Origin: Carnobacterium gallinarum DSM 4847
Lineage (GTDB): Bacteria; Bacillota; Bacilli; Lactobacillales; Carnobacteriaceae
DNA length: 64,000 bases
NCBI RefSeq assembly: GCF_000744375.1
Contig: NZ_JQLU01000005.1
Location: forward strand, 2,403,496 to 2,467,495
Reading direction: 5' to 3'
Part shown: positions 31,927 to 60,821 of the stretch, piece after piece
How the letters are laid out: each line of letters begins with the position of its first letter
How positions within the stretch are numbered: position 1 is the stretch's first letter
Notes under the pieces: model-generated
Databases searched by the model: none
What the model was told of the DNA's origin: nothing
The model's input: the letters and a program-made list of their open reading frames with translations, nothing else
Made by a program: the position numbers and the translations under genes

Positions 31927-34225
31927 AATAAAATCGATTTCATTTGAAAATTTCAAGTTATTTTCAGAAGAAAAAAATATAAAAATGCCAACAGATTCAT
32001 TATTTATTTTAGATGGCCCTAATGGTTATGGAAAAACGACTATTTTTGATGCTATTGAAATTTTAATTAAAGGTGAACGAAATCGCGAGGAAAGTTTAGA
32101 TACGACCTATAAGGTTAGGAATAAAACATTACCATTTGTTAACGATCGAACAAAAAAAATTGTCATTAAAGGAATTTTTGAAATAAAGGGTGAAGAACAT
32201 TGCTATCTAAGAGAATTTGAAAAGGAGAGCACCAAAGGAGTAAGTCAGAATATAAAAAAAGCAAGTGTATTATATAAAATCAGTGACGGTGAAAGAAAAG
32301 AAATTGATGATGAAATAATGTATCAAGAATTAGGCTTAAATTCAGATGGTTCTAATTTCAATTTATTACATTATGTTCAACAGGAAGAAAGCACGGCTTT
32401 TTTGAAACATAGTGAAAAAGGTAGAATGGATGAAATCGGAAAACTTTTTAATACTAGCGAATCAGATTATGAATTTAATAAAATTGATAAAGTAAGACGG
32501 CAATTAATTAAAGTAAAGAAACAAATAACAGAGCAACTAGACCAATCAGAGAAATTAAAAAATAGTTATACAGTAGAAAAAGAAGATAAAAAGATGGAGC
32601 CGGAAGCTTATCTTCAATTGTTCAATCGGTTGAAAATTCCTTGGGATAATGAAGAATACTTTTTTGAAGAGTATAAACATGTACAAGAGGTTACGACACA
32701 ATTAGAAGAATTAAAAGAATTAGTTATCTATAAAAATGAATTTGGAATTTATCAAAAAAATAAAAAAATCATGAACTTAGCAAATCAAGATTCACTTTTA
32801 AAATTAGTGCTTATTTCCCCTGATACTTTAAAGAAAGAAGAGCAAATCAAGATACTTGCAAAAAATGTAATAGATAATCAAAAGTGGCTTCAACAAACAG
32901 ATGACCAAAAAATAAATTGGCTTTTAGAGGATAGATACGTTTATGCATTTGACTATCTAGAATCTTCACAAGAAATGTTTAAAGAATTACATGCAGCCAT
33001 TCTGAAAGACAATAAAAATATTAATGACAGTGAAAAGTTATTAATGAATATACAGCAAGCTAGAGAGAAACTACACGAAAAACATCAACAATTTATTGAA
33101 GAAGCAAATGGAAATGATATTCTATGTCCTTATTGTGGAGAAGCCTATTCAATCGAGTCTTTAGAAAACGCTTATCAGTTAGCAAAAGAGTTCTGTAAAG
33201 GAAACAATGAGTTAGCAGATAATGTGCTCGAAATGGAGAAGCAACGTGATGAACAAATTATAGAATTAACAACAGCTATGGAAAATTTTAATAAAATAAA
33301 TCAGGGGAATCTAATACTTTTTGAATGGATTATTGCAGGAGAAGGAGTAAAAGATAAGTTAGAAAAAAGTAAGATATATTTAGAAAAAGAAAAAATAATA
33401 TATTCTGATTATTTAGTAGATGGACATACCATTGTAACAGATGGGCAAAAAAACTTAGCTCTTTTAAAGAATAAAATTCAAGAATTAAAAGTCAATTTGA
33501 GTACTGAAATGGAAGAAAAGATGGAAAAAAGAAAACAATTATTTTTAGATTTCTTAAAGCAAGATGAAGAGCAGCTAAATGAATTGACAGTTGAAAGTAT
33601 TGAATCAAAACGAATATATATTGAGAATAGTTATTACGATTATGAGAAATCAAAAAGGGATAAAGAGATTGAGAAATATAAAAAATTAGATGCTAAAAAT
33701 CAAGATTTAGGTAAGCTAAAAGAAAAAATTGATGAGATTCATAGTATTTATACTAAACAGAAAAAGAATTATTTAGAAAACTTGCTTTCTAATCTTGAAA
33801 TTACTTTGTATATCTACACAGGGAAGATTATTCAAAATTATCCAGGAGGATTAGGTATATTCATGAAAATAGAATCAGAGGGATCTTACCTTAAATTTCT
33901 ATCGGATTATCAAGATGATGTTGATATTTTTGCTAAACTAAGTACAGGACAATTAAGTGCTTTTGTAATCTCACTAGTATTAGCAATGAATCGGAAATTT
34001 TCAACGGAAGAATTGCCGTTGCTATTAATTGATGATCCAGTCCAGTCGATGGACGAGCTAAACGTGAGTGCCTTTGTTGATTTACTAAGAAATGAATTTA
34101 GCGATCACCAAATAATTGTTTCTACTCATGAAGAACGTATTTCAAACTTTTTCAAGTATAAATATAAAATGTCTAATTTAGATGCTAGAAGTTTAAATGT
34201 AAGAAAAGAATTAAATTTTAAATAA
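31916..34225 (+). CDS. SMC/Rad50-like ABC ATPase with zinc hook (LmuB-like)
   Basis: A 769-residue ATPase. Walker A is DGPNGYGKTT (about 32-41). Two long Lys/Glu-rich coiled-coil regions flank a hook motif CPYC near 404-407, where two molecules would share a zinc ion. The signature motif STGQLSAF is near 676 and Walker B LLLIDDP near 702, followed by the D-loop and switch His (STHEE). This is the layout of Rad50/SMC-like sensors in Lamassu and ABC-3C defence, where they recognise foreign DNA ends or structures and release the nuclease; that mechanism is from related systems. The start is GTG. A terminator follows at 34304. Confidence 0.8.
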   Translation: MKNKIKSISFENFKLFSEEKNIKMPTDSLFILDGPNGYGKTTIFDAIEILIKGERNREESLDTTYKVRNKTLPFVNDRTKKIVIKGIFEIKGEEHCYLREFEKESTKGVSQNIKKASVLYKISDGERKEIDDEIMYQELGLNSDGSNFNLLHYVQQEESTAFLKHSEKGRMDEIGKLFNTSESDYEFNKIDKVRRQLIKVKKQITEQLDQSEKLKNSYTVEKEDKKMEPEAYLQLFNRLKIPWDNEEYFFEEYKHVQEVTTQLEELKELVIYKNEFGIYQKNKKIMNLANQDSLLKLVLISPDTLKKEEQIKILAKNVIDNQKWLQQTDDQKINWLLEDRYVYAFDYLESSQEMFKELHAAILKDNKNINDSEKLLMNIQQAREKLHEKHQQFIEEANGNDILCPYCGEAYSIESLENAYQLAKEFCKGNNELADNVLEMEKQRDEQIIELTTAMENFNKINQGNLILFEWIIAGEGVKDKLEKSKIYLEKEKIIYSDYLVDGHTIVTDGQKNLALLKNKIQELKVNLSTEMEEKMEKRKQLFLDFLKQDEEQLNELTVESIESKRIYIENSYYDYEKSKRDKEIEKYKKLDAKNQDLGKLKEKIDEIHSIYTKQKKNYLENLLSNLEITLYIYTGKIIQNYPGGLGIFMKIESEGSYLKFLSDYQDDVDIFAKLSTGQLSAFVISLVLAMNRKFSTEELPLLLIDDPVQSMDELNVSAFVDLLRNEFSDHQIIVSTHEERISNFFKYKYKMSNLDARSLNVRKELNFK

Positions 34226-40341: not shown

Positions 40342-41124
40342 GTGAGAAAAAAAGCTTTAGTTACTGGTGCAACTTCGGGGATAGGTAAGGCCTTGGCATA
40401 TCAATTGGCTGAAGAGGGATATGAATTGATTTTGTTATCAAAAACACAGGAATCTTTATTCAAATTAAAACATGAACTAACTCAAAAATATACGATAGCT
40501 TGTTCAATTATTTGTTTAGATTTATCGAATCAATCAGAGCTGAAAAAATGGTTGGAACAGGAAATTGAACTAGATGTTCTTGTTAATTGTGCAGGTATTG
40601 GGAAAATAGGTGATTTTCAAACATTGAATTTGTCAGAAGAAGAAAAAATTATTCAAGTGAATGGAATAGCACCTTTTTTAATCACTAAAAAGTTTGCTCA
40701 ACAATTTGTTCAGCAGGATAAAGGGTTAATTATTAATATCTGTTCTACAGCTTCTTTTTATCCTCATCCGTTTCTAACTGTATATGGTGCGACAAAGTCT
40801 TTTTTATTTAGCTATACATTAGGCTTAATGGAGGAGGTTAGACGGTATAGCAGCAATGTGAGAATACTTGCAATCTGTCCTGGTCCAACGAAAACACCTT
40901 TTTTTCAAAAAGAAACAAGAGCTAAAATGGCTCCTGATTTTTTATCACAACATTTTGAAATGACTCCTGAAACTGTAGCAAAGAAGATTATTCAACAATT
41001 TTATCTAAAAAAAAGCTATACAATTATTGGTTTTCAAAATAAATTAACCACTAGGCTGATTCAAGTCTTACCGGCTTTTTTGAAGGTAAGAATCGTAGGA
41101 AGATATATAAAGAAAGGGCTGTGA
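40342..41124 (+). CDS. Short-chain dehydrogenase/reductase
   Basis: A 260-residue NAD(P)-dependent reductase. The Rossmann motif GATSGIG is near residue 9, NCAGIGKIG follows beta-strand 4, and the catalytic YGATK (Tyr/Lys) lies near residue 152. I chose GTG 40342 over GTG 40336, which would sit inside the GAGGAG ribosome-binding site. The C-terminal region has hydrophobic, basic segments that may touch the membrane. First gene of an eight-gene operon with ketoacyl synthase and glycosyltransferases; it probably reduces a keto-lipid intermediate. Confidence 0.85.
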   Translation: MRKKALVTGATSGIGKALAYQLAEEGYELILLSKTQESLFKLKHELTQKYTIACSIICLDLSNQSELKKWLEQEIELDVLVNCAGIGKIGDFQTLNLSEEEKIIQVNGIAPFLITKKFAQQFVQQDKGLIINICSTASFYPHPFLTVYGATKSFLFSYTLGLMEEVRRYSSNVRILAICPGPTKTPFFQKETRAKMAPDFLSQHFEMTPETVAKKIIQQFYLKKSYTIIGFQNKLTTRLIQVLPAFLKVRIVGRYIKKGL

Positions 41125-41130
41125 GCTAGA

Positions 41131-42279
41131 ATGAGTGTATTTATTTTTTTCCTAATTCTTTTTTGGATCTTGTTTTTTGCCAGACTTTTGTTAGCCCGAC
41201 GATTTTATAAAAAAGTAAAAATGAAGCAAGCGGAGCCAATTGATGAAGCAAACTATACAATTGTTCAACCAATTTTGTCTGGAGATATCCGTTTAGAAAA
41301 AGATTTAACGAGTAATCTGAAGAATACTCGGGAAATGCACTTTATTTGGTTGGTCGATAAAAGTGATTTGATTGCTCAGGAAACGACAGCGAGAATTTTA
41401 GTCAATGCTGCCTATCAAAAACGAGTTGAGATTCTGCTGGTAGAGGATGTCTCAGAACAAGTAAATCCTAAGGTTTATAAGCTAGCTCAAGCAGTTTCTA
41501 TGGTAAATACGAAGTACTTGATTGTTTTAGATGATGATACAGTGATTGATTTTACTCAATTTAATGAAATGAGTAGGTATGAAAAAAGAAAAGAAGAATG
41601 GATTGTTACTGGAATTCCGTATAATCATGGACAGTATAACTTCTGGTCTAAATTAGTAGCGGCTTTTGTTAATAGCAATTCGTTACTGACCTATTTTACC
41701 TTAGCTGAAATCAAGCAGAATCACTCCATTAATGGCATGTTTTATATTGTTCCAACTGCAATTGTGCGGAAATATTCTATTTTTGAAGAAATTCAGTATC
41801 AATTATGTGATGATTTGGCAATTGCGACATATCTAAGTCAGAAAAACGTGACGATTATCCAAAGTAGTATTTTTTGTAATGTTCGTACAACCCTTACGAG
41901 TGGTACTCAGTATCTTCGTTTGATGAAGCGCTGGCTGTTATTCGCAACAATTTATCTGAAAAAAAATGCCTCTATTCAGTTGTATCTTCTCTTGGTTATT
42001 CCAACTTTATTTCCTTTTCTATTACTAGCGTGCAGCTTCTTTTTAGGATTTCCTTATTTTTTACTTACAGTAAGTATCTTCTTTTTAAAAGCTATTATTT
42101 TAACCTTTTTCCGAAGACGAGTTACTAGAAAATCTGAGGGATTGTCTGAAATAATCTATGAAGTTTTGAATGAGTGCTGTTTGCCACTTCTGTATATCTA
42201 TAATCTCGTTACTCCGCCAGTCATTCTGTGGCGCAATAAAAAGATTCGTGTGACAGGTGATCGGATTCATTATGAGTAG
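41131..42279 (+). CDS. Membrane glycosyltransferase, GT2-like (ceramide-glucosyltransferase type)
   Basis: A 382-residue enzyme with one N-terminal helix (about 3-20) and two to four C-terminal helices (about 285-330 and 355-370). The soluble GT-A domain has IVLDDDTVID (metal-binding DxD-like) near residue 134 and a C-terminal RLMKRWLLF, resembling the Q/RxxRW motif of ceramide glucosyltransferase-like GT2 enzymes. It would add a sugar to a lipid acceptor at the membrane. Six bases after the reductase gene; overlaps the next gene. Confidence 0.8.
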   Translation: MSVFIFFLILFWILFFARLLLARRFYKKVKMKQAEPIDEANYTIVQPILSGDIRLEKDLTSNLKNTREMHFIWLVDKSDLIAQETTARILVNAAYQKRVEILLVEDVSEQVNPKVYKLAQAVSMVNTKYLIVLDDDTVIDFTQFNEMSRYEKRKEEWIVTGIPYNHGQYNFWSKLVAAFVNSNSLLTYFTLAEIKQNHSINGMFYIVPTAIVRKYSIFEEIQYQLCDDLAIATYLSQKNVTIIQSSIFCNVRTTLTSGTQYLRLMKRWLLFATIYLKKNASIQLYLLLVIPTLFPFLLLACSFFLGFPYFLLTVSIFFLKAIILTFFRRRVTRKSEGLSEIIYEVLNECCLPLLYIYNLVTPPVILWRNKKIRVTGDRIHYE

Positions 42280-42913
42280 ATCATTTAATAAGTATCTCAA
42301 AAAATTACAAGAGTTGGAGACCAAGGATACGTTGGTTACAGGGAAAAAAGTGGTTTTACTGATTAGCGGTAGCAGTCATTATCAGCATGCTGAATTGTCA
42401 GAAATTCAAAAAAAATTTTTCACACAAGATTATTTTAACGGCTATCAAATCATTGATATGAATTTTCCTTATAATCAAAAATTTAAAGTGCAAGAAGCCC
42501 AGTTTCCTAGTTTATTTCAAGCAAGTCTTCAAAATATTGGTTATTTTTTTCATACAATTTGGAATCGGCGTTTTAAGCAAGAATTGATCAGGCATCTGGC
42601 GCCTGTGTTTAAGGCGGAAGAAGTGGTGATTATTAGTCAGAGTTCGGGGTTGAATATGTTGACTCAGGTGTTGGCAGATAGTTCATTTAATGCTGAAAAA
42701 TGTCAGATTATTGCGTTGGGTCCAGTTTCTTATAAAAAGCTAGATCCTTCTGTGGCTAAGTGGACGGTAATAAAAGGTACAAAGGATTACTATTCAACGT
42801 TTTTAGATAGCCAACCAGTGGATTATCTGGTTTCGAGTAATCATTTTGATTATTTAGAAAATGGTGAAGTAGGGGAAATTATTTATGAAAGAATTCAAAA
42901 AAATCAAGATTGA
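42272..42913 (+). CDS. Unknown protein with hydrolase-like SxSxG segment
   Basis: A 213-residue soluble protein I do not recognise. It has an alternating strand/helix pattern: KVVLLISGSS near the start, and VVIISQSSGLNML in the middle resembling a nucleophile elbow of alpha/beta hydrolases. Later IIALGPVSY and VIKGTKDYYS resemble further core strands. A degraded or divergent alpha/beta hydrolase is plausible. It overlaps both neighbours, so it is translated with the glycosyltransferases. I chose ATG 42272, with AGGTGAT upstream. Confidence 0.5.
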   Translation: MSRSFNKYLKKLQELETKDTLVTGKKVVLLISGSSHYQHAELSEIQKKFFTQDYFNGYQIIDMNFPYNQKFKVQEAQFPSLFQASLQNIGYFFHTIWNRRFKQELIRHLAPVFKAEEVVIISQSSGLNMLTQVLADSSFNAEKCQIIALGPVSYKKLDPSVAKWTVIKGTKDYYSTFLDSQPVDYLVSSNHFDYLENGEVGEIIYERIQKNQD

Positions 42914-44156
42914 CTTAGTCGCCGTTCCATTTAGTGGGCATTTGTATCCATTGTTAGAACTGGCATCACCTTTTTTAGAAGATGAAAGATACGAAGTCCG
43001 AGTGATTACAGGTGTTCAAAAGATAGAGTTAGTTGAATTAAAAGGTTTTACTGTGGTTCCTTTGTTTCCAAATCAGCCTTTTATTATGGAAGAGATTGCG
43101 AATACAACGAAACAGATTAGTAGCTTAGGCATGTACAAACAGTTGCAACAAAATATGGCGATTATTCCTGAGGCAGTCCAGCAAATCAAGGATGCTCTAG
43201 AAGAAAATCAAACGGATATTGTCGTGGCTGATTTTATTGCGGCACCTGCAGGAATTGCTTGTCAGGAGCTAGCTATTCCGTGGATTACGACGATTCCAAC
43301 ACCATTTGCGATGGAGACTCGGAATGGGACACCGACTTATTTAGGTGGCTGGAAAAAGAAAAACCAGCGTTTGTTTAAACTACGAGATGCCGTTGGTCGA
43401 AAAATAGTCCGCTTTTTTACAAGATTTGTTTACTTCTTAGTTCGTACTAAATTAAAAGACTTTAATTTTCAATTATACAACGAGAAGGGGGAAGAACAAA
43501 TCTATTCACCTTATTCAATCTTAGGGTTGGGAATGGAGGAGCTTGAATGGAATGTTGATTTTCCAGAGCAATTTAAATGGGCGGGACCATGCTGTGCCTC
43601 ATTAGAATCAGAACAGTTTGTCTTTGAAGATACAGGTGAGTTTGAAAAAAAAATCTTACTTACGATTGGGACTCATTTGCTTTGGGGAAAAGATTTTTTA
43701 ATTGAATTAGCTCAAACCTTAAGTGCAGACTATCCAAATTTTCACTTTATTCTTTCGATGGGAAACAGTCAAGAGCGGCATAAAAAGCCAACGAAAGTGA
43801 AGGGAAATATTACCGTCTATGCCTATCTGCCTTATACTGAAACGATTGAAAAAGTCGATTATGTGATTCATCATGGTGGAGCGGGAATTCTCTATAATTG
43901 TATAAAGTTTAAAAAGCCAGCGCTAATTATTCCCCATGATTATGATCAATTTGATTATGCAGTTAGAGCGGAATGGGCTGGTATTGGAATTGTTGCAAAA
44001 AAAAGAAAACTAAATCAGATTCGTAAAAAATTCATTGACTTAATTGAAACAGCTCAATGGCCTGAATTAGAAAAATGCCAACAAGACTTCAAACAATATC
44101 ATCCGAGCCAATTATTGGAAAGTGAAATTCAACGAATCTTATTAACGACAGAATAA
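42885..44156 (+). CDS. GT1-family (MGT/UGT-like) glycosyltransferase
   Basis: A 423-residue GT-B fold enzyme. The N-terminal AVPFSGHLYPLLELA matches the acceptor-domain opening of macrolide/flavonoid glycosyltransferases. The C-terminal YVIHHGGAGILYNCIKF is the nucleotide-sugar binding segment (HHGGAG), followed by PHDYDQFDYA. Such enzymes glycosylate lipids or small aromatic/polyketide acceptors. With the neighbouring GT2 it would place two sugars on the operon's product. It overlaps the previous gene by 29 bases. Confidence 0.88.
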   Translation: MKEFKKIKIDLVAVPFSGHLYPLLELASPFLEDERYEVRVITGVQKIELVELKGFTVVPLFPNQPFIMEEIANTTKQISSLGMYKQLQQNMAIIPEAVQQIKDALEENQTDIVVADFIAAPAGIACQELAIPWITTIPTPFAMETRNGTPTYLGGWKKKNQRLFKLRDAVGRKIVRFFTRFVYFLVRTKLKDFNFQLYNEKGEEQIYSPYSILGLGMEELEWNVDFPEQFKWAGPCCASLESEQFVFEDTGEFEKKILLTIGTHLLWGKDFLIELAQTLSADYPNFHFILSMGNSQERHKKPTKVKGNITVYAYLPYTETIEKVDYVIHHGGAGILYNCIKFKKPALIIPHDYDQFDYAVRAEWAGIGIVAKKRKLNQIRKKFIDLIETAQWPELEKCQQDFKQYHPSQLLESEIQRILLTTE

Positions 44157-44170
44157 AAGGACTGCTGATA

Positions 44171-45148
44171 ATGAAAATATTCGTAACAGGGGCAACAGGT
44201 TTTTTAGGGAAATACATTTTAGAAGAGTTAGCAGCTTCAGGGTATGAAGTAGTCGCTTTTGGACGCAATGCTACAGTAGGGAAACAATTAATTAGTGAGA
44301 AGGTCACCTTTATTCAAGGGGACTTTACGAACTTGTCTGAAATCAGAGCTGCTGCTAAAGGTGTTGATGGGATTGTTCATGCAGGAGCCTTGTCAACAGT
44401 CTGGGGGAAATGGACTGATTTTTATCAGATAAATGTTGTGGGAACGGAAAATATATTGAAAGTATGTGAAGAAAATCAGGTGAAGCGCCTTGTATTTATT
44501 TCTTCTCCAAGTATTTATGCAGGTCCGAAACATCAATTTGATATCAGAGAAGAAGAAGCACCGGAAAAAAATGAGCTGAATAATTATATTAAAAGTAAAT
44601 TACTAGCAGAAGCTAAAATTCGTGAAAAAAGTCAGCTGAATAGTGTTATTATTCGACCGAGAGGCTTGTTTGGCATTGGGGATACGAGCATTATTCCCAG
44701 ATTGTTAAAGGTGAATAAAAAAATAGGGATGCCTTTATTCGATGGCGGGGAACAATTAGTTGATGTTACCTGTGTTGAAAATGTTGCATTTGCCATTCGT
44801 TTAGGTCTGGAAAGTCCACAAGCAGTAGGAAATACGTATAATATTACTAACGGTGAACCAAGACCTTTTAAGCAAATATTGGATCAAATGTTAGCTGAAA
44901 TTGGGACGCCTGCAAGATATATTCGCCTAAACTATTCATTTATGTTGTTGGTTGCAAGTAGCTTAGAAGCGAGCTACGATTTTTTTAATAGCGGAAAAGA
45001 ACCAATCTTTACGAAATATACATTATTTTTATTAAAGTATAGTCAAACGTTAAGTATTGAAAAAGCTAAAAATGAGTTAGGGTATTATCCTAAGCTAAGC
45101 TTAGATGAAGGGATAAAAAAATATGCAGAAGATTATCGAAAAAATTGA
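44171..45148 (+). CDS. NAD(P)-dependent epimerase/3-beta-HSD-like reductase
   Basis: A 325-residue extended SDR. GATGFLGKYI is the cofactor loop (residues 7-16), HAGALSTVWG follows, and the catalytic pair lies in SSPSIYAG...NNYIKSKLLAE (an N-Y-I-K-S-K variant of YxxxK). It resembles the OleD/3-beta-hydroxysteroid dehydrogenase group, which reduces long-chain beta-keto acids, rather than a sugar epimerase. Next to a KAS III-type synthase and an adenylating enzyme, it could play an OleD-like role. The next gene starts inside its end. Confidence 0.85.
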   Translation: MKIFVTGATGFLGKYILEELAASGYEVVAFGRNATVGKQLISEKVTFIQGDFTNLSEIRAAAKGVDGIVHAGALSTVWGKWTDFYQINVVGTENILKVCEENQVKRLVFISSPSIYAGPKHQFDIREEEAPEKNELNNYIKSKLLAEAKIREKSQLNSVIIRPRGLFGIGDTSIIPRLLKVNKKIGMPLFDGGEQLVDVTCVENVAFAIRLGLESPQAVGNTYNITNGEPRPFKQILDQMLAEIGTPARYIRLNYSFMLLVASSLEASYDFFNSGKEPIFTKYTLFLLKYSQTLSIEKAKNELGYYPKLSLDEGIKKYAEDYRKN

Positions 45149-45923
45149 GTATTTTGCTTGCGGATATTGTGTTAACTATAAAGCGACACTATTTAAGAAC
45201 ACACAGAAAGAAAAAATGATTTTTCCAGCTGGTGTTTTTTTATTCAAACACCCTAAGGAAGGATATATCTTATATGATACAGGTTACTCCACTCAGCTTT
45301 ATCAAAAAAAGTTGATTTATCGACTTTATTGCCGCATCAATCCCACTTATATTACAGAAGAGGAAACGATTGATCAACAATTAAAAAAAGTTGGTATTGA
45401 GGTAGATGAGATTAAAATAGTTATTTTATCTCATTTGCATCCAGATCATATTGGCGCAGTAAAAAGGTTTCCTAATGCTAGAATCCTCTTGTCTAATGAT
45501 GCTTATCAAAGCTTCGTGAAACCTAAATTAACTGATATTATCTTCTCTGATTTTCTACCAGAAAATTTTGGTGATAGAGTCGAAATTATCCAACCGAATC
45601 AGCTAAATGAAGGATTTCTGTATAAAGAGACGATGGATTTATTTGGTGATGGGAGTTTATTGCTAGCCTCTTTTGATGGACATGCAAAAGGGCAACTTTG
45701 TTTGTATTTTCCAGAATATCGTTTGTTTATTGGAGCGGATATTTGTTGGGGGATTGATCTAATCCCATTGACAGAAAGAATTAAATGGCTTCCGGTTCGT
45801 TTGCAAAATAATAAAAAAGCTTATTTTGAAAGTATTGCACTTTTAAAGCGCATCATGGCAGATGGCATTCAAGTCGCAGTGAGTCATGATCCTGAAGAAA
45901 GGGTAAGGGATATTCTAAAATGA
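45123..45923 (+). CDS. Metallo-beta-lactamase-fold hydrolase
   Basis: A 266-residue enzyme with the zinc-binding motif SHLHPDHIG (near residues 101-109) and a further LASFDGHAKGQL ligand region; AVSHDPEE near the end supplies the last His. Its size and layout resemble N-acyl-homoserine-lactonase-like (AiiA) members. In the operon it could release an acyl intermediate (thioester or lactone). It overlaps the previous gene by 26 bases and ends 4 bases into the next. Confidence 0.85.
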   Translation: MQKIIEKIEYFACGYCVNYKATLFKNTQKEKMIFPAGVFLFKHPKEGYILYDTGYSTQLYQKKLIYRLYCRINPTYITEEETIDQQLKKVGIEVDEIKIVILSHLHPDHIGAVKRFPNARILLSNDAYQSFVKPKLTDIIFSDFLPENFGDRVEIIQPNQLNEGFLYKETMDLFGDGSLLLASFDGHAKGQLCLYFPEYRLFIGADICWGIDLIPLTERIKWLPVRLQNNKKAYFESIALLKRIMADGIQVAVSHDPEERVRDILK

Positions 45924-47197
45924 AAAAATTTAAATTTATGACGACATTTATTCAAACGCGTTGGCTGAGAACGTTTCAAACGGAACAAAAAGTAAAGGCT
46001 TATCAAGAAAAAAAGATTGCAGAACAAATGAAGTACATGAAGAAACATTCACCTTTTTTTAGTCGATGGAATGAAGTTACGCTTCCAACCATGGATAAAA
46101 ATTTTATGATGACCCATTTTGATGAACTGAATACAGTTGGGCTGAAAAAGGAAGAGGCGCTAGCAATTGCGCTGATGAGTGAAGAAACGCGAGAATTTGA
46201 AGAAACGATTGGGGATATTTCGGTAGGCTTATCTTCTGGAACTTCAGGACATCGTGGATTATTTGTTACGAGCCAAACCGAGCAGGCGATTTGGGCGGGA
46301 ACGATGTTAGCTAAAATGCTTCCAGAAAAACAACTTCTTCATCATAAATTAGCTTTTTTTCTAAGAGCCGATAATAATTTGTATCAAACCATCAATTCTA
46401 AAGTGATTCAATTGACTTATTTTGACATGTATCAAAGTATGATCCAACACATTCTGACATTAAACGAGTATCAACCAAGTATTCTGATTGCCCCGGCTTC
46501 AGTTTTGGTGGAACTTGGGAAAGCAGTTGAAGCTGGAAATCTTTCCATCAATCCAATCAAAGTGATTTCAGTTGCTGAAATTTTAGAAGAGCGAGATAAA
46601 ACGTATTTAAAAAAAGTTTTTCAACAAAATGTAATTCACCAAGTCTATCAATGTACCGAAGGCTTTTTAGGTTGTACGTGTAGCCATGGAACGCTTCATT
46701 TGAATGAAGATCTTGTTAAAATTGATCGGGAGTATTTAGATGATCGCCGATTTTATCCGATTATTACTGATTTTACCCGAACCTCTCAGCCAATTATAAA
46801 CTATCGCTTAAACGATATCTTAGTGCTTTCTCAAGAACGTTGTCCTTGTGGTTCGGCTTTTCAAGCAATTGAAAAAATTGAAGGGCGCTCAGATGATATT
46901 TTTGTATTTAAAGGAAAAAAACAAGCTGAAATCCGGGTTTTCCCTGATTTTATTCGCAGATGTATCTTATTTGTTCCTAATATAAGAGAATATCAAGTCA
47001 TTCAAAGGTCCCCGCATCAGATTGAGATTCATATTAATGATGTTACAACAGAACAGCGGGAACAGATGACAACTGAGTTTTCAAAATTAGCTGAAGATTT
47101 AGAATTTGAGGATCCGACCTTACTCTTTGTACCCTATGGAAATGAATTTAATAAAAAGTTAAAACGAATTAGCCGAATTAAATTGGAGGAAAAATAA
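45920..47197 (+). CDS. Adenylate-forming enzyme, F390 synthetase/PaaK-like
   Basis: A 425-residue member of the acyl/aryl-adenylating superfamily. The phosphate-binding loop is LSSGTSGHRG (near residue 105). YQCTEGFLGCTC and CPCGSAF contain paired cysteines reminiscent of the zinc site seen in PaaK/F390-synthetase-like enzymes, and IEGRSDDIF is the hinge region. It would activate a carboxylic acid as acyl-AMP. The partner is probably the ketoacyl synthase encoded next (1-base overlap, ATGA-type). Confidence 0.8.
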   Translation: MKKFKFMTTFIQTRWLRTFQTEQKVKAYQEKKIAEQMKYMKKHSPFFSRWNEVTLPTMDKNFMMTHFDELNTVGLKKEEALAIALMSEETREFEETIGDISVGLSSGTSGHRGLFVTSQTEQAIWAGTMLAKMLPEKQLLHHKLAFFLRADNNLYQTINSKVIQLTYFDMYQSMIQHILTLNEYQPSILIAPASVLVELGKAVEAGNLSINPIKVISVAEILEERDKTYLKKVFQQNVIHQVYQCTEGFLGCTCSHGTLHLNEDLVKIDREYLDDRRFYPIITDFTRTSQPIINYRLNDILVLSQERCPCGSAFQAIEKIEGRSDDIFVFKGKKQAEIRVFPDFIRRCILFVPNIREYQVIQRSPHQIEIHINDVTTEQREQMTTEFSKLAEDLEFEDPTLLFVPYGNEFNKKLKRISRIKLEEK

Positions 47198-48129
47198 TGA
47201 ATCAGATCGAAATAAAAGGATATGGAACGGCTTTACCTGCGGAGTCAATTACGTTGAATGACCAAACGAGATATCGAGTAAGTGGAGAAGAAACACAGTT
47301 GACGTTGGCGGTTGAAGCTTGCATAGCTGCGCTAGCAAAAGCCCAGCTGTCTATTGAAGACATTGATTGTATTGTGTCAGCGAGTGCTGTACCAGTTCAA
47401 CCAATTCCGTGTACGGCTGCATTGATTCATGAAAGAATTGCGATGGGATCCGATATTCCAGCAGTAGATATTAATACAACCTGTACAAGTTTTGTAACAG
47501 CTTTGGATACTTTTTCTTATCTTATTGACGCAGGACGTTATGAGAAGGTGTTGATTGTCTCTAGTGAAGTTGGTTCATTAGGCTTGAATCCTAAACAAAA
47601 AGAAAGCTATGAATTATTTAGTGATGGAGCAGCGGCGTTTGTATTATCAAAGAGTTCAAATAGTAAAAAGGGTGTTATTTATGGGATGCAACGAACTTGG
47701 TCTGAAGGAGCGCATGCTACTGAAATCCGTGGGGGATTAACTAATTTATTGCCTAGATTTTATACAGAAGAAACTCATGATGAGTATTTATTCGATATGA
47801 AAGGGAAGCAGATTTTGTCATTAGTGATTAAAAAATTGCCTAAAATGATGGAAGATTTTTATGCTGAAAGTCAGTTATCTATTGATGAAGTTGACTTTGT
47901 CATCCCGCATCAAGCGAGTCGGGCAATGCCATTAATTATGAAGAAAATAAACATTCCAGAACACAAGTTTTCTAATCTACTTGTTGATTATGGAAATATG
48001 GTGTCAGCTTCGATCCCATTTTCCTTGTGTAAAGCTTTAGATAGTGGACAGGTTAAAGAGAATGATGTCGTTGTTTTAATTGGAACGGCTGCGGGAATGA
48101 CAACGAATATCTTGGCAATAAGGCTATAA
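47197..48129 (+). CDS. Ketoacyl-ACP synthase III-like enzyme
   Basis: A 310-residue thiolase-fold condensing enzyme of the FabH type. The catalytic triad is visible: Cys96 in TTCTSF, His238 in PHQAS and Asn267 in YGNMVSAS. It is probably not the housekeeping fabH, because it lies at the end of a dedicated operon with adenylating, reducing and glycosylating enzymes. It would condense two acyl units to start or complete a lipid chain. No acyl carrier protein gene is seen in the operon, so it must borrow one or use CoA esters. Confidence 0.88.
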   Translation: MNQIEIKGYGTALPAESITLNDQTRYRVSGEETQLTLAVEACIAALAKAQLSIEDIDCIVSASAVPVQPIPCTAALIHERIAMGSDIPAVDINTTCTSFVTALDTFSYLIDAGRYEKVLIVSSEVGSLGLNPKQKESYELFSDGAAAFVLSKSSNSKKGVIYGMQRTWSEGAHATEIRGGLTNLLPRFYTEETHDEYLFDMKGKQILSLVIKKLPKMMEDFYAESQLSIDEVDFVIPHQASRAMPLIMKKINIPEHKFSNLLVDYGNMVSASIPFSLCKALDSGQVKENDVVVLIGTAAGMTTNILAIRL

Positions 48130-48262
48130 TTTTAATAACGTTAATCGTTTTATGTAGGTATAGTTAAGAAATAAAAATTAAATTAGAAATAGAAATCCAA
48201 TTTGTTGAGAAAGGGATTTCTATTTTTTTATTCTTTTTGAGAGAGCAGATTAAAGAAATACA

Positions 48263-48315
48263 TTGCGCATCAGTTATTTTGATGATACTATAATTGAGAA
48301 TGAGAATCGTTATCA
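48263..48315 (+). promoter_or_regulatory. Promoter with Fur-type box of the siderophore importer operon
   Basis: -35 TTGCGC (48263-48268), 17-bp spacer, -10 TACTAT (48286-48291). TGAGAATCGTTATCA (48301-48315) fits the 7-1-7 Fur/PerR-type consensus TGATAATNATTATCA with few mismatches and covers the expected transcription start. This predicts repression by iron-loaded Fur. Confidence 0.75.
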
Positions 48316-48379
48316 ATTGAAAAAGAGCTGATTTTAACGACGTGCATCATCAATTTATTAAGGTAGGAGGGATCATTTT

Positions 48380-49462
48380 TTGGAAGTTGATCTTAAGTTA
48401 AAAAGAATCAAGAAAGGATTATTTTCTCGAAATACGCTTACTATAGCTTTGATTGTTATTTTTTTATTTTCAATTATTTTTTCATTAGGCAATGGGCAGG
48501 CAGATATTTCGTTAACGGATATTTTTCAGATTCTTGTTTTTAAAGTTTCAAATGGCTTGGTTGGAAGTCTGGAAGGTATTAATCAAGGTGGAGTCAATAT
48601 TATTTGGTTTGTTCGTACGCCACGAGTTCTTATGTCTATTTTTGTTGGTTTGGGTTTGGCAACTAGTGGAGTTGTGATGCAGGCGGTTGTGCAAAATCCA
48701 TTAGCTGATCCATATATATTAGGGATTTCGTCAGGTGCCTCTCTAGGTGCAACTTTTGCAATTATGGTTGGCTTCGGTTCAGCAAGTATTTTCTCACAAC
48801 TGAATTTATCGTTTACAGCCTTTTTAGGCGCATTATTGGCGACTTTTTTAGTACTAGGTCTTTCTAACATTGGCGGCAGAATGACTTCGACGAAATTAGT
48901 TCTATCGGGAACAGTCATTAACTCTATTTTAGGTGCATTTTCTAGTCTAATTGTTTTTCTGGCGAATAATGCAGAAGGAATGAAAAGTGTTACCTTTTGG
49001 TCAATGGGAAGTTTAGCTTCAGCAAATTGGTCAAAATTACCACTAGTAGCTACGATTTCATTGCTTATTTTTGGCTTTTTTGCAACTCAGTTTCGCGTAC
49101 TAAATACGATGTTGTTGGGGGAGGAAGCGGCAATGACATTGGGCATCTCACTAGGACGATATCGTCGGATTTATATGGTGATAGCGGCATTATTAACGGC
49201 TTTAATCGTAGCTAATTCTGGTATGATTGGCTTTGTTGGTTTGATTATTCCACATATTGCGCGGGGAATCTATGGTTCAGATCACAAAAAATTAGTCCCT
49301 ATCTGTGGTTTTTTGGGAGCGTTATTTTTAGTTTGGACGGACTTACTCTCACGGATCATTCTACCGAATACAGATTTGCCAATTGGAATCTTAACAGCTA
49401 TTATTGGGGCACCTACTTTTATTTATATTATTGTGAAACGTGAGTATCGATTTGGAGGGTGA
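48380..49462 (+). CDS. Ferric-siderophore ABC transporter permease (FecCD family)
   Basis: A 360-residue permease with about ten membrane helices. FecCD hallmarks are present: FVRTPRVLMSIFVGLGLATSG, NPLADPYILGISSGAS and GFVGLIIPHIARG. It forms the membrane channel for iron-siderophore (or heme/cobalamin) import, probably as a homodimer since only one permease gene is present. The start is TTG with AGGAGG 11 bases upstream. First gene of the Fur-box operon; ATPase gene follows after 3 bases. Confidence 0.92.
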   Translation: MEVDLKLKRIKKGLFSRNTLTIALIVIFLFSIIFSLGNGQADISLTDIFQILVFKVSNGLVGSLEGINQGGVNIIWFVRTPRVLMSIFVGLGLATSGVVMQAVVQNPLADPYILGISSGASLGATFAIMVGFGSASIFSQLNLSFTAFLGALLATFLVLGLSNIGGRMTSTKLVLSGTVINSILGAFSSLIVFLANNAEGMKSVTFWSMGSLASANWSKLPLVATISLLIFGFFATQFRVLNTMLLGEEAAMTLGISLGRYRRIYMVIAALLTALIVANSGMIGFVGLIIPHIARGIYGSDHKKLVPICGFLGALFLVWTDLLSRIILPNTDLPIGILTAIIGAPTFIYIIVKREYRFGG

Positions 49463-49465
49463 AGA

Positions 49466-50227
49466 ATGAGTTTAGATGTTCAAAATTTAAGTATAAAGCT
49501 TGGCAAAAAGCAGATTATTCAAGATCTATCCCTCTCCATGAACACCAATCAATTTGTTGGGATTATTGGAGCCAATGGAAGCGGAAAATCGACCTTACTA
49601 AAATCAATTTATAAAAGTTTAAAGCCTGAATCAGGGACTATTTATTATAATAAATTAGATATTTTGGATTCTTCAGCAAAGATTGTTTCACAAAAATTGG
49701 GAGTTGTTAGTCAATTCAATGAGTTGAGTTTTGATTTAACCGTTTTTCAGATGGTGTTACTTGGTCGAACGCCACATAAAAAATTATTAGAATCGGATAC
49801 AGCAGAAGATTTAGCCATTGTTGAACGAGCATTAGCTGAAATGAATTTAACGACATATCGGGATGAAAGTTTTTTAGCCTTATCAGGTGGCGAAAAGCAA
49901 CGTGTAATTCTAGCTCGTGCGTTGACCCAACAACCAGAGTTTTTGATTCTTGATGAGCCAACCAATCATTTGGATATTCGGTATCAATTAGAATTAATGG
50001 AACGAGTGAAAAATCTTGGAATTGGTGTTTGTGCGGCATTGCACGATTTAGATTTGGCTGTTGCATATTGTGATTATCTGTATGCTATGAAAGATGGGCA
50101 AATTATTGCTGAAGGAACCCCTGAGAAGTTATTTACTGAAAGTTTAGTAGAGGAGCTTTATGGGATAAAATGTTCCCTATTTAAAAATCCACTAACAAAT
50201 AAATTAGCGTTTCATTATTATGTATAA
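49466..50227 (+). CDS. Ferric-siderophore ABC transporter ATPase (FecE/FhuC family)
   Basis: A 253-residue ATPase. Walker A GANGSGKST is near residue 36, signature LSGGEKQR near 137, Walker B FLILDEPTNHLD near 158, switch His in ALHDLDLA. It powers the permease encoded just upstream. All motifs are intact and the length is standard. Confidence 0.95.
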   Translation: MSLDVQNLSIKLGKKQIIQDLSLSMNTNQFVGIIGANGSGKSTLLKSIYKSLKPESGTIYYNKLDILDSSAKIVSQKLGVVSQFNELSFDLTVFQMVLLGRTPHKKLLESDTAEDLAIVERALAEMNLTTYRDESFLALSGGEKQRVILARALTQQPEFLILDEPTNHLDIRYQLELMERVKNLGIGVCAALHDLDLAVAYCDYLYAMKDGQIIAEGTPEKLFTESLVEELYGIKCSLFKNPLTNKLAFHYYV

Positions 50228-50249
50228 ATTAAAAGGAGTCGATGATAAA

Positions 50250-51263
50250 ATGAAAAAAATTATTGGCAGTGTATTTGCTGTTATAGTACTTATTTTCCTG
50301 ACAGCATGTGGGGGAAATGAAACCCAACAAGAAACAAAGGATACCACTGCAAGTAATTACCCTGTGACTATTGGGAATTATAGTAAAGCGGAAGGTGCTA
50401 CAGAATGGCAGAAAAAAGAGCAAACCTTTAAAAAAATGCCTGAACGAGTTTTGGTGAATACGAGACCGGCAGCAGAGTTGATGCTACGTCTTGGATTAGA
50501 CAAACAAATTGCAGGTGTTGGAGCTACATTTGGCATTGCAGATGAGTTGGTTGCAAAGCAATTTGATCAACTAAATCATCTTGGAGATAGTTATATTAGT
50601 AAGGAAGTTGCTTTAAGTGTTGATCCAGATATGATATATGGTCGTGGTAGTTTATTTGAAAATGAAGAATGGGGTAATGGAACAGTAGATTCTATTAATG
50701 AAATGGGCATTCCAACGTATGTTGTTGAAACGTCAATTCCCGGAGCTACCTTTAATTCAGTTTATAAAGATATTGAAAATCTAGGTCAAATTTTTAATGT
50801 ACCAGATGAAGCTGAAAAATTTACTAAAGAGCTAAAAGAACGACAAGCGAAACTAAATAAAAAAGTAGCCGATATAAAGAAAGAACAAACTTTTGCATAT
50901 TTGCATATGAATGAACCAACAGAAGTTTTAGTGTATTCGGCATATGGTGAAAGTTTTTTCAATGATGCATTTGCTACTATTAAGTTGAATAATGCTTTTA
51001 AAGACATTAAAGGAGATGTGTCGATTGAGACCTTGATTGAAACAGATCCAGATGTCTTAATAGTACCAGATTGGTCTACCTATAAAGATGGCGTGAAAAA
51101 AGAAGACATGATTCGTGCCATTTTAGAAAATAAAAAACTAGCTAGTATGAAAGCTATTAAAAATAAGCAGGTTTATGCGGTAGATTACAATTATATGTTT
51201 GGATACGGGTATCAATCCTTAACAGGAATGGAACTATTAGCCACAGAATTATATGGAAAATAA
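50250..51263 (+). CDS. Iron-siderophore-binding lipoprotein
   Basis: A 337-residue substrate-binding protein. The signal peptide ends in a lipobox LTAC (Cys near residue 20), so it is lipid-anchored outside the cell. The body has the FecB/BtuF pattern: PERVLVNTRPAAELMLRLGL, then DPDMIYGRGS, then ETDPDVLIVPDW. I chose ATG 50250, with AAAGGAG upstream, rather than an in-frame ATG at 50220 that would destroy the signal peptide. It delivers ferric chelate to the permease. Confidence 0.93.
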   Translation: MKKIIGSVFAVIVLIFLTACGGNETQQETKDTTASNYPVTIGNYSKAEGATEWQKKEQTFKKMPERVLVNTRPAAELMLRLGLDKQIAGVGATFGIADELVAKQFDQLNHLGDSYISKEVALSVDPDMIYGRGSLFENEEWGNGTVDSINEMGIPTYVVETSIPGATFNSVYKDIENLGQIFNVPDEAEKFTKELKERQAKLNKKVADIKKEQTFAYLHMNEPTEVLVYSAYGESFFNDAFATIKLNNAFKDIKGDVSIETLIETDPDVLIVPDWSTYKDGVKKEDMIRAILENKKLASMKAIKNKQVYAVDYNYMFGYGYQSLTGMELLATELYGK

Positions 51264-51281
51264 AGAATTGGGGGAAAGTAT

Positions 51282-52304
51282 ATGAAGCAAGCATTAGTAG
51301 ATGTAGTGATTATTGGTGGGGGACCAGCTGGTTTGTATGCTTCTTTTTATGGCGGATTAAGGGATTTAAAAGTTACAGTATTAGAGGCTCAAGAGAATTT
51401 AGGTGGGAAATTAAACTTTTATCCGCAAAAATTTGTTTGGGATGTTGGAGGAATGGCAGGAACAAAAGGTGAGGAAATCTGTCAAAATTTAATTCAGCAA
51501 GGAATGTTATTTGGGGCGACTATTTATACAAATAGTCCGGCTATTGGTCTGACTAAAAGTGAGAATCTTTTTTATGTAGAAGATCAACAAGGCCGGATTC
51601 ACCCCTGTCGAACAGTATTGTTAGCAATTGGAGGTGGAATTATTTCTCCTAAAAAGTTAACTATCCCTATTTCAAAAATAGTTAGTAAAAACCTACACTA
51701 TACCTTTCCAAAGCATAAAGCGATTCAGAAAAAGAGGGTCTTTGTCTCTGGTGGTGGTGACGCAGCGATTGATTATGCTAATGAATGTTTGGAATTAGCT
51801 AAAGAGGTAACCTTAGTCTATCGTGGCGAAAAAATCAAAGCTCATGAAGCTTCTTTAGCTAGTTTTATTGCTGGTGGAGGCAAGGTGAGACTGAATACAG
51901 TGATTGTAGATGTACAGGAAGGGACTAAAAGTGAATTAGAAGTTAGCTTGAACTGTCAAGGAAAGACTGAAAAGTTAGCTGCGGATCACCTGCTGATTCA
52001 GCATGGATATGACTACAATAGTGCCTTTTTGGATGGTGTGCCTTTTGAATTTTTAAAAGAACAAGATTATTATTTAAAATGTCTTGAGCCTACCCAAACA
52101 AATATTCCTGGTATATTTGCAGCAGGGGATAGTCAATCTTATGCAGGAAAATTGTATTTATTAGCGGGAGCTTTTCAGGATGGTGCTAACAGCATCAATC
52201 AGATTAAACAGTATTTGGAGCCTAAAAGTTATGGACAAGCCATGGTTTCATCACATAATGACAAGTTTAATGAAATGAATCATGAATTATTATGGACTGA
52301 GTAG
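51282..52304 (+). CDS. Type 2 ferredoxin-NADP+ reductase-like flavoprotein
   Basis: A 340-residue thioredoxin-reductase-like FAD/NADP protein without the redox CxxC, as in Bacillus YumC-type FNRs. FAD motif GGGPAGLYASFYGG is near residue 13, NADP motif VSGGGDAAIDYA near 155, C-terminal FAD motif GIFAAGDSQSY near 281. Being in the Fur-box operon, it may supply electrons to reduce imported ferric chelates. A terminator follows at 52317-52356. Confidence 0.9.
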   Translation: MKQALVDVVIIGGGPAGLYASFYGGLRDLKVTVLEAQENLGGKLNFYPQKFVWDVGGMAGTKGEEICQNLIQQGMLFGATIYTNSPAIGLTKSENLFYVEDQQGRIHPCRTVLLAIGGGIISPKKLTIPISKIVSKNLHYTFPKHKAIQKKRVFVSGGGDAAIDYANECLELAKEVTLVYRGEKIKAHEASLASFIAGGGKVRLNTVIVDVQEGTKSELEVSLNCQGKTEKLAADHLLIQHGYDYNSAFLDGVPFEFLKEQDYYLKCLEPTQTNIPGIFAAGDSQSYAGKLYLLAGAFQDGANSINQIKQYLEPKSYGQAMVSSHNDKFNEMNHELLWTE

Positions 52305-54223: not shown

Positions 54224-54360
54224 ATTAAAGACTACCCCTAAATGTAAGGGGACTATAACGAATGAAGAGGGGAGGCTCGTTCGACTTAGATTAAAGACTA
54301 CCCCTAAATGTAAGGGGACTATAACAACAATTGCATTAACTATGGATAGGCTACAATTAA
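54224..54360 (+). CRISPR. CRISPR array A, leader-proximal part
   Basis: Two complete 36-base repeats (54224-54259, 54290-54325) with 30-base spacers at 54260-54289 and 54326-54355, then the first five bases (ATTAA) of a third repeat at 54356-54360, where the IS3-family element begins. The repeat starts ATTAAAGACTA, has stem ACCCC/GGGGA around loop TAAATGTAA, and ends GACTATAAC. The hairpin in the 5' part followed by the spacer fits a Cas13a crRNA read left to right. Confidence 0.95.
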
Positions 54361-55724: not shown

Positions 55725-56156
55725 ATTAAAGACTACCCCTAAATGTAAGGGGACTATAACTCTATCAGTAGACTATCCACGTCTCTAACTATTAAAGACT
55801 ACCCCTAAATGTAAGGGGACTATAACCATCCATTAATTCTTTATAAGCTTCTTCTAATTAAAGACTACCCCTAAATGTAAGGGGACTATAACAGGACTTA
55901 AAATATATGTATTCTAGTTCTGATTAAAGACTACCCCTAAATGTAAGGGGACTATAACTCCTCAATGCTTTTATTTTGAGCGTTCGCTATTAAAGACTAC
56001 CCCTAAATGTAAGGGGACTATAACTACCGACTAGAGAACTCTTTAGTCACTTGAATTAAAGACTACCCCTAAATGTAAGGGGACTATAACTGCTTTTGTT
56101 AAATTGATTATTGGGTCTTCATTAAAGACTACCCCTAGTAAAAAATAGTTATAATT
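55725..56156 (+). CRISPR. CRISPR array A, leader-distal part
   Basis: Six identical 36-base repeats start at 55725, 55791, 55857, 55923, 55989 and 56055. Spacers are all 30 bases; the first (55695-55724) follows the IS scar, and the last is at 56091-56120. A terminal degenerate repeat at 56121-56156 keeps only its first 16 bases (ATTAAAGACTACCCCT). A decayed last repeat marks the leader-distal end and agrees with left-to-right transcription. Confidence 0.95.
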
Positions 56157-60601: not shown

Positions 60602-60821
60602 TCAATCTCTTCATTCGTATTTTGTCTAGTTAAGATAAGTACCACCAAATACAATCAATCCAAAAAAGCTACTAAACAGCTATTATTGTTTATTGGCTTT
60701 TTTATACGTTAGTTCATTAAAGTGAGTAATCTAAGTTCAACTAATTGTCTATATTTATTGCATTCCCCAATAAACAGGTATAAACTAGAAGTTCACTATT
60801 TTAAGAAATGGGGAAATGTGG
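60602..60821. other. Intergenic region between array B and helD
   Basis: Contains a terminator-like inverted repeat, AAAAAAGC (60664 area) / GCTTTTTT (60697 area), that would end the array B transcript. The rest should hold the helD promoter; GGGGA just upstream of 60822 is the ribosome-binding site. Confidence 0.5.

What the first reader, a model, noticed from the sequence alone, without database searches (positions are those of the whole stretch)
40342..48129. Eight-gene operon likely making an undescribed glycosylated lipid
A FabH-like condensing enzyme with intact Cys/His/Asn, a PaaK/F390-type adenylating enzyme, an OleD/3-beta-HSD-like reductase, a second SDR, an MBL-fold hydrolase, a GT2 ceramide-type and a GT1-type glycosyltransferase, and an unknown protein overlap end to end. 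The set suggests acyl activation, condensation, reduction and double glycosylation. The combination recalls olefin/beta-lactone (ole) pathways but adds glycosyltransferases and lacks a dedicated carrier protein. I cannot name a known product.
Basis: partly seen in the sequence, partly recalled or inferred. Interest (0 to 1): 0.72.

Follow-up and report, generated by a model that had tools for sequence, protein, structure and literature searches.

The report
Lipid-glycoside operon with Ole-like core
An eight-gene bacterial operon whose four-gene core is shared by streptococci, fusobacteria, Clostridia, actinobacteria and E. coli probably builds an unknown fatty compound that is then decorated with sugar; no product is known.

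Summary
The operon is real: eight intact same-strand genes, five of seven junctions overlapping. (1) A core (OleD-like reductase, lactonase-fold MBL hydrolase, PaaK/F390-type adenylating enzyme TIGR02304, FabH-clade ketosynthase) is complete in 83 of 86 loci from Bacillota, Fusobacteriota, Actinomycetota, Pseudomonadota and MAGs of other phyla; catalytic residues are conserved and distances co-vary. (2) Tailoring genes vary: glycosyltransferases of four families (61 of 86 loci), ATP-grasp with or without GNAT (9 loci), or PAP2 plus two desaturase-type genes in E. coli (672 of 5426 complete genomes). (3) The window adds an SDR / GT21 / alpha-beta-hydrolase module shared with Enterococcus and fusobacteria. 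Best reading: an Ole-like pathway built partly from non-orthologous enzymes. The ketosynthase makes a beta-keto product, OleD reduces it, the ligase activates the acid, the MBL opens a lactone or thioester, and glycosyltransferases add sugar. It is not a true ole cluster: the OleA glutamate is Ile/Leu in 87 of 87 and an OleB-type hydrolase is absent from the core. The downstream iron-transport genes look like a separate unit. I found no product or paper; substrates and product are inference.

The parts
40342..41124 (+). SDR1: classical short-chain dehydrogenase (ORF open from GTG 40336), Ser/Tyr150/Lys154 present (numbered from 40336); weak resemblance to mycolate reductase
   Evidence: (adh_short 9.3e-44; NF040690 141 bits, cut-off 380)
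41131..42279 (+). GT21-like membrane glycosyltransferase (ceramide-glucosyltransferase / HpnI-like); D134-D136, D227 and R267-W268 invariant in 7 of 7
42257..42913 (+). Unknown, predicted minimal alpha/beta hydrolase; candidate triad Ser129-Asp177-His196 invariant in 5 of 5 sequences
   Evidence: pLDDT 73; Foldseek best: Bacillus lipase A, E 2e-4, TM about 0.5
42885..44156 (+). GT1 / MGT-type (UDP-glycosyltransferase fold) glycosyltransferase
   Evidence: Kcn28, YjiC, sterol 3-beta-glucosyltransferase among solved relatives
44171..45148 (+). OleD-like extended SDR (2-alkyl-3-oxoalkanoate reductase is the nearest named family); Ser111/Tyr139/Lys143 invariant in 85 of 85 aligned
45123..45923 (+). 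MBL-fold hydrolase of the AHL-lactonase / pyridoxolactonase type; seven metal ligands invariant in 86 of 86 aligned
   Evidence: (pLDDT 93.5)
45920..47197 (+). PaaK/F390-synthetase-related adenylate-forming enzyme (TIGR02304); candidate A10 lysine K413 invariant in 87 of 87; possible Zn site (recalled from PaaK-type enzymes) C254/H260/C308/C310, 86 of 87 at each position
47197..48129 (+). FabH-clade ketosynthase (KASIII), Cys96/His238/Asn267; segment that holds FabH Trp32/Arg36 deleted; Ile70-Pro71 where OleA has Glu117-Pro
48185..48229 (+). Rho-independent terminator-like hairpin with T-run, ending the operon
   Evidence: -15.6 kcal/mol, z -3.2, 0 of 200 shuffles as stable; not listed by the pattern scan, which allows loops of 3-8 only
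48380..52304 (+). Probably NOT part of the operon: FecCD-type permease, ATPase, substrate-binding lipoprotein and FAD oxidoreductase (names from reading the sequences), preceded by a Fur-box-like sequence at about 48294-48319 (motif recalled)

Best explanation
A tailored version of a widespread, uncharacterised 'Ole-like' biosynthetic cassette. Shown by sequence: a conserved four-enzyme core with intact active sites, inherited together and fitted with exchangeable tailoring genes. Inferred steps: (1) the FabH-clade ketosynthase joins an acyl chain, probably delivered on a carrier protein because the FabH CoA-clamp segment is missing, to a second activated chain (malonyl- or beta-ketoacyl-thioester). 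(2) The OleD-like SDR reduces the beta-keto group to a beta-hydroxyl. (3) The F390/PaaK-type enzyme adenylates the carboxylate, either closing a lactone, as OleC does, or handing the acyl group to an acceptor. (4) The lactonase-fold MBL opens that lactone or a thioester, and so sets the final form of the acid. (5) GT1 glycosylates the hydroxyl. In the window, a second module (SDR1, GT21-like, alpha/beta hydrolase) makes a further reduction, adds another sugar and trims or transfers an acyl group. The product would be a membrane-associated or exported glycoside of a beta-hydroxy (possibly alpha-branched) fatty acid or related lactone.
For: Core complete in 83 of 86 loci (78 of 80 genome loci, 5 of 6 plasmid records); two of the three misses are cut by contig ends. 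Core distance matrices correlate, Mantel r 0.77-0.89 in 37 loci, max permuted 0.34. Conserved catalytic residues: KS Cys/His/Asn 87 of 87; MBL metal ligands 86 of 86; F390 K413 87 of 87; OleD Ser/Tyr/Lys 85 of 85 (n is the number of loci in which the ORF was found). OleD is the reductase's best NCBIfam match. The MBL resembles lactonases by profile and by fold: the top 26 Foldseek rows are AHL or pyridoxo-lactonases. KS closest to 4v2p (MxnB, recalled) and CorB; MxnB fuses two chains (passages). GTs of four families beside the core: GT1 51, GT21-like 7, GT4 5, GT2 1 locus (Pfam checks). A glycosylated ole product has been proposed before for one actinobacterial ole cluster (PMC7064751, passage).
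Against: No substrate or product evidence exists. OleD score (204.6) is far below the equivalog cut-off (580). PaaK-type ligases often act on aryl acids (recalled). The MBL could be a plain thioesterase. 23 of 86 loci show no GT by my test and two more only remnants: six Streptococcus sanguinis, L053, L066, L064, L071, six Bacilli, five plasmid records (E. coli and Ketogulonicigenium among them) and two truncated loci; GTs elsewhere in those genomes were not sought. Two over-cut-off TIGR02304 genes (L101, L103) had no core gene in their flanks. 'Lipid' rests on enzyme families and on E. coli neighbours (two desaturase-type genes), not on a measured compound.
Confidence: 0.45

Rival explanations
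1. Aryl-primed, Pqs-like pathway: the PaaK-type enzyme activates an aromatic acid, KASIII extends it or joins it to a fatty acyl chain, the MBL acts as a thioesterase (PqsE role), the SDR reduces a ketone, and GTs glycosylate an aryl-alkyl product.
For: Phenylacetate-CoA ligases are the nearest solved relatives of the ligase; weak NCBIfam matches to FlxY, BagE/FevW and PaaK; a PQS biosynthetic enzyme (3h76) and PqsC are among the KASIII hits.
Against: 3h76 and PqsC (76.5 and 52.6 bits or less) rank well below 4v2p/CorB (149.7 and 139.6 bits); PqsE is not among the 50 Foldseek rows shown or the 24 profile hits of the MBL, which are led by lactonases; OleD-like reductases have no place in the Pqs scheme (recalled).
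Confidence: 0.2
2. Two independent pathways in one operon: the core makes one compound (with or without GT1), while SDR1/GT21/alpha-beta hydrolase modifies or makes a separate membrane glycolipid.
For: The module is separable: GT1 plus core without the module in 32 of 42 Streptococcus loci, module without GT1 in two Fusobacterium loci, L011 and L059.
Against: A GT21-like gene also sits without SDR1 and the hydrolase beside the core in Lacrimispora (L087) and a Clostridiales MAG (L078), which suggests it acts on the core product; in the window the two sets are contiguous and ABH overlaps GT1.
Confidence: 0.17
3. A bona fide ole (OleABCD) beta-lactone/olefin pathway.
For: OleD-like reductase, a thiolase-fold condensing enzyme and an ANL-type enzyme lie together.
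Against: The OleA Glu117 position is Ile (84) or Leu (3) in 87 of 87 (defining residue from PMC7064751, where all OleA proteins but two had it); the KS scores higher with FabH (172.8 bits) than with PRK09258 (98 bits; that this is the OleA-like group is recalled); the ligase is TIGR02304; no OleB-type hydrolase in the core.
Confidence: 0.06
4. Siderophore or iron-related metabolite, because FecCD-type iron transport genes follow directly.
For: Adjacency in the window.
Confidence: 0.04

Closest known systems
OleABCD olefin / OleADC beta-lactone pathways
   Same: Thiolase-fold condensing enzyme, OleD-family reductase, an adenylating enzyme and a hydrolase encoded together; a glycosyltransferase in an ole cluster has one published precedent (PMC7064751, passage)
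   Different: KS lacks the OleA glutamate and is FabH/MxnB-like; ligase is PaaK/F390-type; hydrolase is lactonase-fold MBL
MxnB / CorB stand-alone ketosynthases (myxopyronin, corallopyronin)
   Same: Nearest solved relatives (149.7 and 139.6 bits; 4v2p = MxnB is recalled); hydrophobic residue where OleA/PpyS has Glu (Val94 per PMC4578411; Ile70 here); CHN triad
   Different: No PKS assembly line here; chains must come from fatty acid synthesis or elsewhere; 76 of 87 members, the window's included, lack an N-terminal segment found in FabH
TIGR02304 F390 synthetase-related family (NCBIfam)
   Same: The ligase is a clear member (565 bits, cut-off 251.9)
   Different: The NCBIfam name assigns no reaction; two over-cut-off members (L101, L103; 290 and 282 bits) showed no core genes in their 1.5-kb flanks
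AHL lactonases / pyridoxolactonase (AiiA, AttM, AhlX)
   Same: Fold and complete dinuclear-type metal site
   Different: AttM model 75 bits, cut-off 390; sits in a biosynthetic cassette
Rhamnolipid genes rhlA-rhlB-rhlC (recalled, not tested)
   Same: Alpha/beta-hydrolase-fold protein plus GT1 plus a GT2-superfamily enzyme acting on hydroxy-fatty acids
   Different: No sequence relation tested; the core enzymes have no counterpart there as far as I recall

Membership tests
ole pathway | OleA thiolase with Glu117 followed by Pro | tested here: not met
   Ile 84 / Leu 3 of 87 at that column, Pro 87 of 87; criterion from PMC7064751 and PMC4578411; column placed by the conserved Pro, OleA itself was not in my alignment
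ole pathway | OleD 2-alkyl-3-oxoalkanoate reductase at equivalog level | tested here: not met
   best named family but 204.6 bits against cut-off 580
ole pathway | OleC-type beta-lactone synthetase | tested here: inconclusive
   ligase is TIGR02304 at 565 bits; whether NCBIfam holds an OleC model was not checked; activity untested
ole pathway | OleB beta-lactone decarboxylase (haloalkane-dehalogenase-like; family recalled) | tested here: not met
   the core hydrolase is an MBL; the alpha/beta hydrolase is LipA-like and was found near the core in 6 of 86 loci
FabH (TIGR00747) | curated score | tested here: not met
   172.8 bits, cut-off 292.1
FabH (TIGR00747) | Cys-His-Asn triad | tested here: met
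   87 of 87
FabH (TIGR00747) | CoA adenine clamp Trp32/Arg36 (E. coli roles recalled) | tested here: not met
   segment gapped in 76 of 87, the window included; Trp kept in 8 of 87; own-genome FabH has it
MxnB/CorB-type chain-fusing KS | condensation of two beta-ketoacyl chains | not testable with these tools
   sequence nearest; function needs assay
TIGR02304 F390 synthetase-related | curated score | tested here: met
   565.3 against 251.9 bits
AHL lactonase | AttM/AiiA equivalog score | tested here: not met
   75.3 against 390 and 51.3 against 375
AHL lactonase | HxHxDH...H...D...H metal site and fold | tested here: met
   86 of 86 aligned; Foldseek E 7.8e-18
PQS (PqsABCDE) pathway | PqsE-type MBL and PqsA-type anthranilate ligase | not tested
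   no dedicated comparison made; only database rankings

The most novel reading that the evidence does not exclude
A horizontally spread, previously undescribed class of bacterial chain-fused (mycolate- or Ole-like) lipids, made by a non-orthologous Ole-like core and glycosylated in many Gram-positive and fusobacterial members, present in common human-associated bacteria (oral streptococci, Leptotrichia, Fusobacterium, and about one in eight complete E. coli genomes).
Probability: 0.3. Interest if true: 0.82.

Novelty: new variant of a known kind. Interest (0 to 1): 0.57.

Why it matters
Four enzymes with intact active sites travel together across at least four phyla and sit in human-associated streptococci and fusobacteria and in 672 of 5426 complete E. 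coli genomes, yet I found no paper that gives the cassette a product (searches; open-licence PMC only). If it makes an unrecognised lipid or lactone, it would add a metabolite class to well-studied bacteria and give a function to TIGR02304. The exchangeable glycosyltransferases offer a natural set for finding the sugar acceptor.

Tried and rejected
Rejected: true ole cluster (OleA glutamate, OleB, OleD score); iron/siderophore link (terminator-like hairpin, separate loci in another genome); chance neighbourhood (control); hopanoid HpnI/HpnA pathway (HpnI 44.9 bits against 310, HpnA 127 against 367.65). Considered and not resolved: thioesterase versus lactonase for the MBL; malonyl versus second acyl chain for the KS.

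Led nowhere: paper searches by family name, CoF synthetase, TIGR02304, PRK07204 and E. coli neighbourhood (each listed one paper, of which I opened the first at passages: it mentions an F390 synthetase in a different FASII cluster). The 'coenzyme F390 synthetase' search listed 6 papers; I opened two at one passage each, each naming one gene whose membership in this family I did not check. The promoter scan found 29 sites against 32.6 in shuffles. The first FabH control picked a wrong ORF and was replaced. The alpha/beta hydrolase model is only moderate (pLDDT 73, 4 sequences).

Sampling limits: the 80 genome loci are the best of 562 confirmed and 42 of them are Streptococcus by title (labels typed); the six plasmid records were picked by hand from the 20 listed of 73; the GT and core BLAST queries include sequences from some of those loci (self-matches for L014, L045, L058, L062, L073, L079, L084); several lineages are MAGs. 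In one search, 37 of 39 chosen loci were used (L013 and L015 dropped because a core ORF was lost to my overlap filter). Over-cut-off TIGR02304 is rare: 8 of 59 relatives, own included, and 0 of the 17 others of the same genus or family; 9 of 398 Bacillota genomes, own included.
Full report
What is there. Eight + strand ORFs occupy 40336/40342-48129. Five of seven junctions overlap; the others have 6- and 14-nt gaps. The operon ends at a hairpin with a T-run. The next genes (FecCD-type permease, ATPase, binding protein, FAD oxidoreductase, named by reading) begin after a Fur-box-like stretch (motif recalled), and I treat them as a separate unit.

A conserved core. TIGR02304 over its cut-off is patchy: 8 of 59 relatives, own included and none of the 17 others in the same genus or family, and 9 of 398 Bacillota genomes, own included. 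With one genome-contig scan (best 80 loci of 562 confirmed) and six hand-picked plasmid-collection records, 83 of 86 loci hold OleD, MBL, F390 and KASIII together within -5.5/+3 kb: 78 of 80 and 5 of 6. Of the three misses, L070 and L077 are cut by contig ends and L016 (Pseudomonas plasmid) has a dispersed arrangement. Control on the unselected Bacillota sample: 7 of 9 over-cut-off loci have MBL and OleD in the 1.5-kb flanks, against 0 of 21 fetched sub-cut-off homologues; the two exceptions, L101 and L103, score 290 and 282 bits. The four distance matrices correlate with Mantel r 0.77-0.89 over 37 loci, permuted maximum 0.34; this shows joint inheritance, not function. The concatenated tree mixes orders and phyla: a Saccharibacteria MAG with an Aerococcaceae bacterium, Microbacterium with an unassigned bacterium, Leptotrichia and a Fusobacterium MAG with Streptococcus hillyeri (supports 1.0, 0.967 and 0.986). 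That is best explained by horizontal transfer, with the caution that several are MAGs and no species tree was built.

Active sites (n is the number of loci in which the ORF was found, window included). KASIII Cys96, His238 and Asn267 are invariant in 87 of 87. The residue that is Glu117 in OleA is Ile (84) or Leu (3), followed by Pro in 87 of 87. The segment that carries Trp32/Arg36 in FabH is gapped in 76 of 87 (also; the FabH roles are recalled). MBL metal ligands are invariant in 86 of 86. F390 Ser105/Gly107/Thr108, Glu247, Asp284, Asp299, Arg323 and Lys413 are invariant in 87 of 87; Gly110 in 76 of 87; a possible zinc set Cys254/His260/Cys308/Cys310 in 86 of 87 at each position. OleD Ser111/Tyr139/Lys143 are invariant in 85 of 85. 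So nothing in the core looks degenerate.

What the parts resemble. Nearest solved KASIII relatives are 4v2p (listed as 'ketosynthase'; I recall it as MxnB) and CorB (4yuc), ahead of FabH, a PQS enzyme and the entries I recall as OleA. MxnB condenses two beta-ketoacyl chains (PMC5724707, passages); OleA and PpyS need a glutamate that MxnB/CorB lack (PMC4578411, parts 1-2 of 3; PMC7064751, passages). The MBL model (pLDDT 93.5) and profile match AHL lactonases and pyridoxolactonase first. The ligase matches phenylacetate-CoA ligases. The unknown protein models as a minimal alpha/beta hydrolase like Bacillus lipase A (pLDDT 73, TM about 0.5, E 2e-4), with Ser129, Asp177 and His196 invariant in 5 of 5 sequences. 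That fold assignment is moderate, not firm.

Tailoring genes change while the core stays. GT1 accompanies the core in the window and in 51 of 86 loci: Enterococcus, 32 of 42 Streptococcus loci, Leptotrichia, several Clostridia, Acholeplasma, an Aerococcaceae bacterium and a Campylobacteraceae MAG among them. A GT21-like gene does so in 7 loci (two Enterococcus, two Fusobacterium, Leptotrichia, Lacrimispora, a Clostridiales MAG). GT4 occurs in a Saccharibacteria MAG and, on the other strand, in four Microbacterium loci; GT2 in one unassigned bacterium. In all, 61 of 86 loci have a GT gene at 100 bits or more (lowest 169), two have remnants (L054, L057), and 23 have none by this test, two of them truncated. 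Nine loci carry an ATP-grasp gene instead (six Bacilli, Pontibacillus, Paenibacillus and the Pseudomonas plasmid), seven of them with a gene annotated as GNAT in Paenibacillus; the Bacillus copy of that gene has no Pfam match. E. coli carries PAP2, sterol-desaturase-family and acyl-CoA-desaturase genes between narI and the tRNA-Tyr/purU region; the stretch is in 672 of 5426 complete genomes, a set I expect to be clinically biased. The window's SDR1/GT21/hydrolase module is complete in two Enterococcus and two Fusobacterium loci; in Leptotrichia the hydrolase ORF is partial.

How it most likely works. The best-supported reading is an Ole-like sequence of condensation, beta-keto reduction and carboxyl activation, with a lactonase-type hydrolase and glycosylation. 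The order of the steps, the substrates, and whether the KS extends with malonate or fuses two chains are inference. Loss of the FabH CoA-clamp segment suggests carrier-bound substrates, drawn from the cell's own ACP, since no carrier gene is in the operon. A Pqs-like aryl pathway is the main rival.

Known or not. It is not a member of the ole family, because a defining residue was tested and not met. It is a member of TIGR02304, whose name assigns no reaction. I found no description of the cassette under the names searched; subscription papers, MIBiG and antiSMASH were not available. I rate it a new variant of a known kind, with a 0.3 chance that it is a genuinely new lipid class.

Noticed in passing
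window 56337-59831, arrays 54224-54355, 55725-56120 and 60104-60601: Type VI-A CRISPR-Cas: a 1164-aa Cas13a (PADLOC 707 bits) with two R-x4-H motifs (R457, R1056), flanked by two arrays with different 36-nt repeats at 66-nt spacing.
   Followed up: partly
window 54744-55580: Transposase (rve integrase core, HTH_21) lying between repeat units of the first CRISPR array, so the array looks split by an insertion.
   Followed up: no
window 29808-34225: Lamassu-like defence genes: LmuA match (79.5 bits), ABC-3C middle component, SMC-like LmuB (214 bits), preceded by a helicase with AAA_11/AAA_12/DUF2726 at 27005-29785; region G+C is as low as 26-29%.
   Followed up: partly
window 60816-62996: UvrD-like helicase resembling GajB and RT-associated helicase models only in part, next to the Cas13a locus.
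   Followed up: no
window 22871-24832: Collagen-binding, SpaA-repeat surface protein.
   Followed up: no
L014, L125 and E. coli genomes: E. coli form of the cassette with PAP2, sterol-desaturase-family and acyl-CoA-desaturase genes beside the tRNA-Tyr/RtT region, in 672 of 5426 complete genomes.
   Followed up: partly
L054, L057: Streptococcus rubneri and Streptococcus sp. bf_0095 keep only weak GT1 matches (90 and 68 bits) near an intact core, as if GT1 was lost there.
   Followed up: no
L064:26-2770: A Lachnospiraceae MAG has a 914-aa protein with an AMP-binding enzyme domain directly before the core instead of a GT.
   Followed up: no
L016: Pseudomonas sp. Leaf58 plasmid holds the core genes dispersed over about 10 kb among unrelated genes, with an ATP-grasp match of 139 bits nearby.
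   Followed up: no
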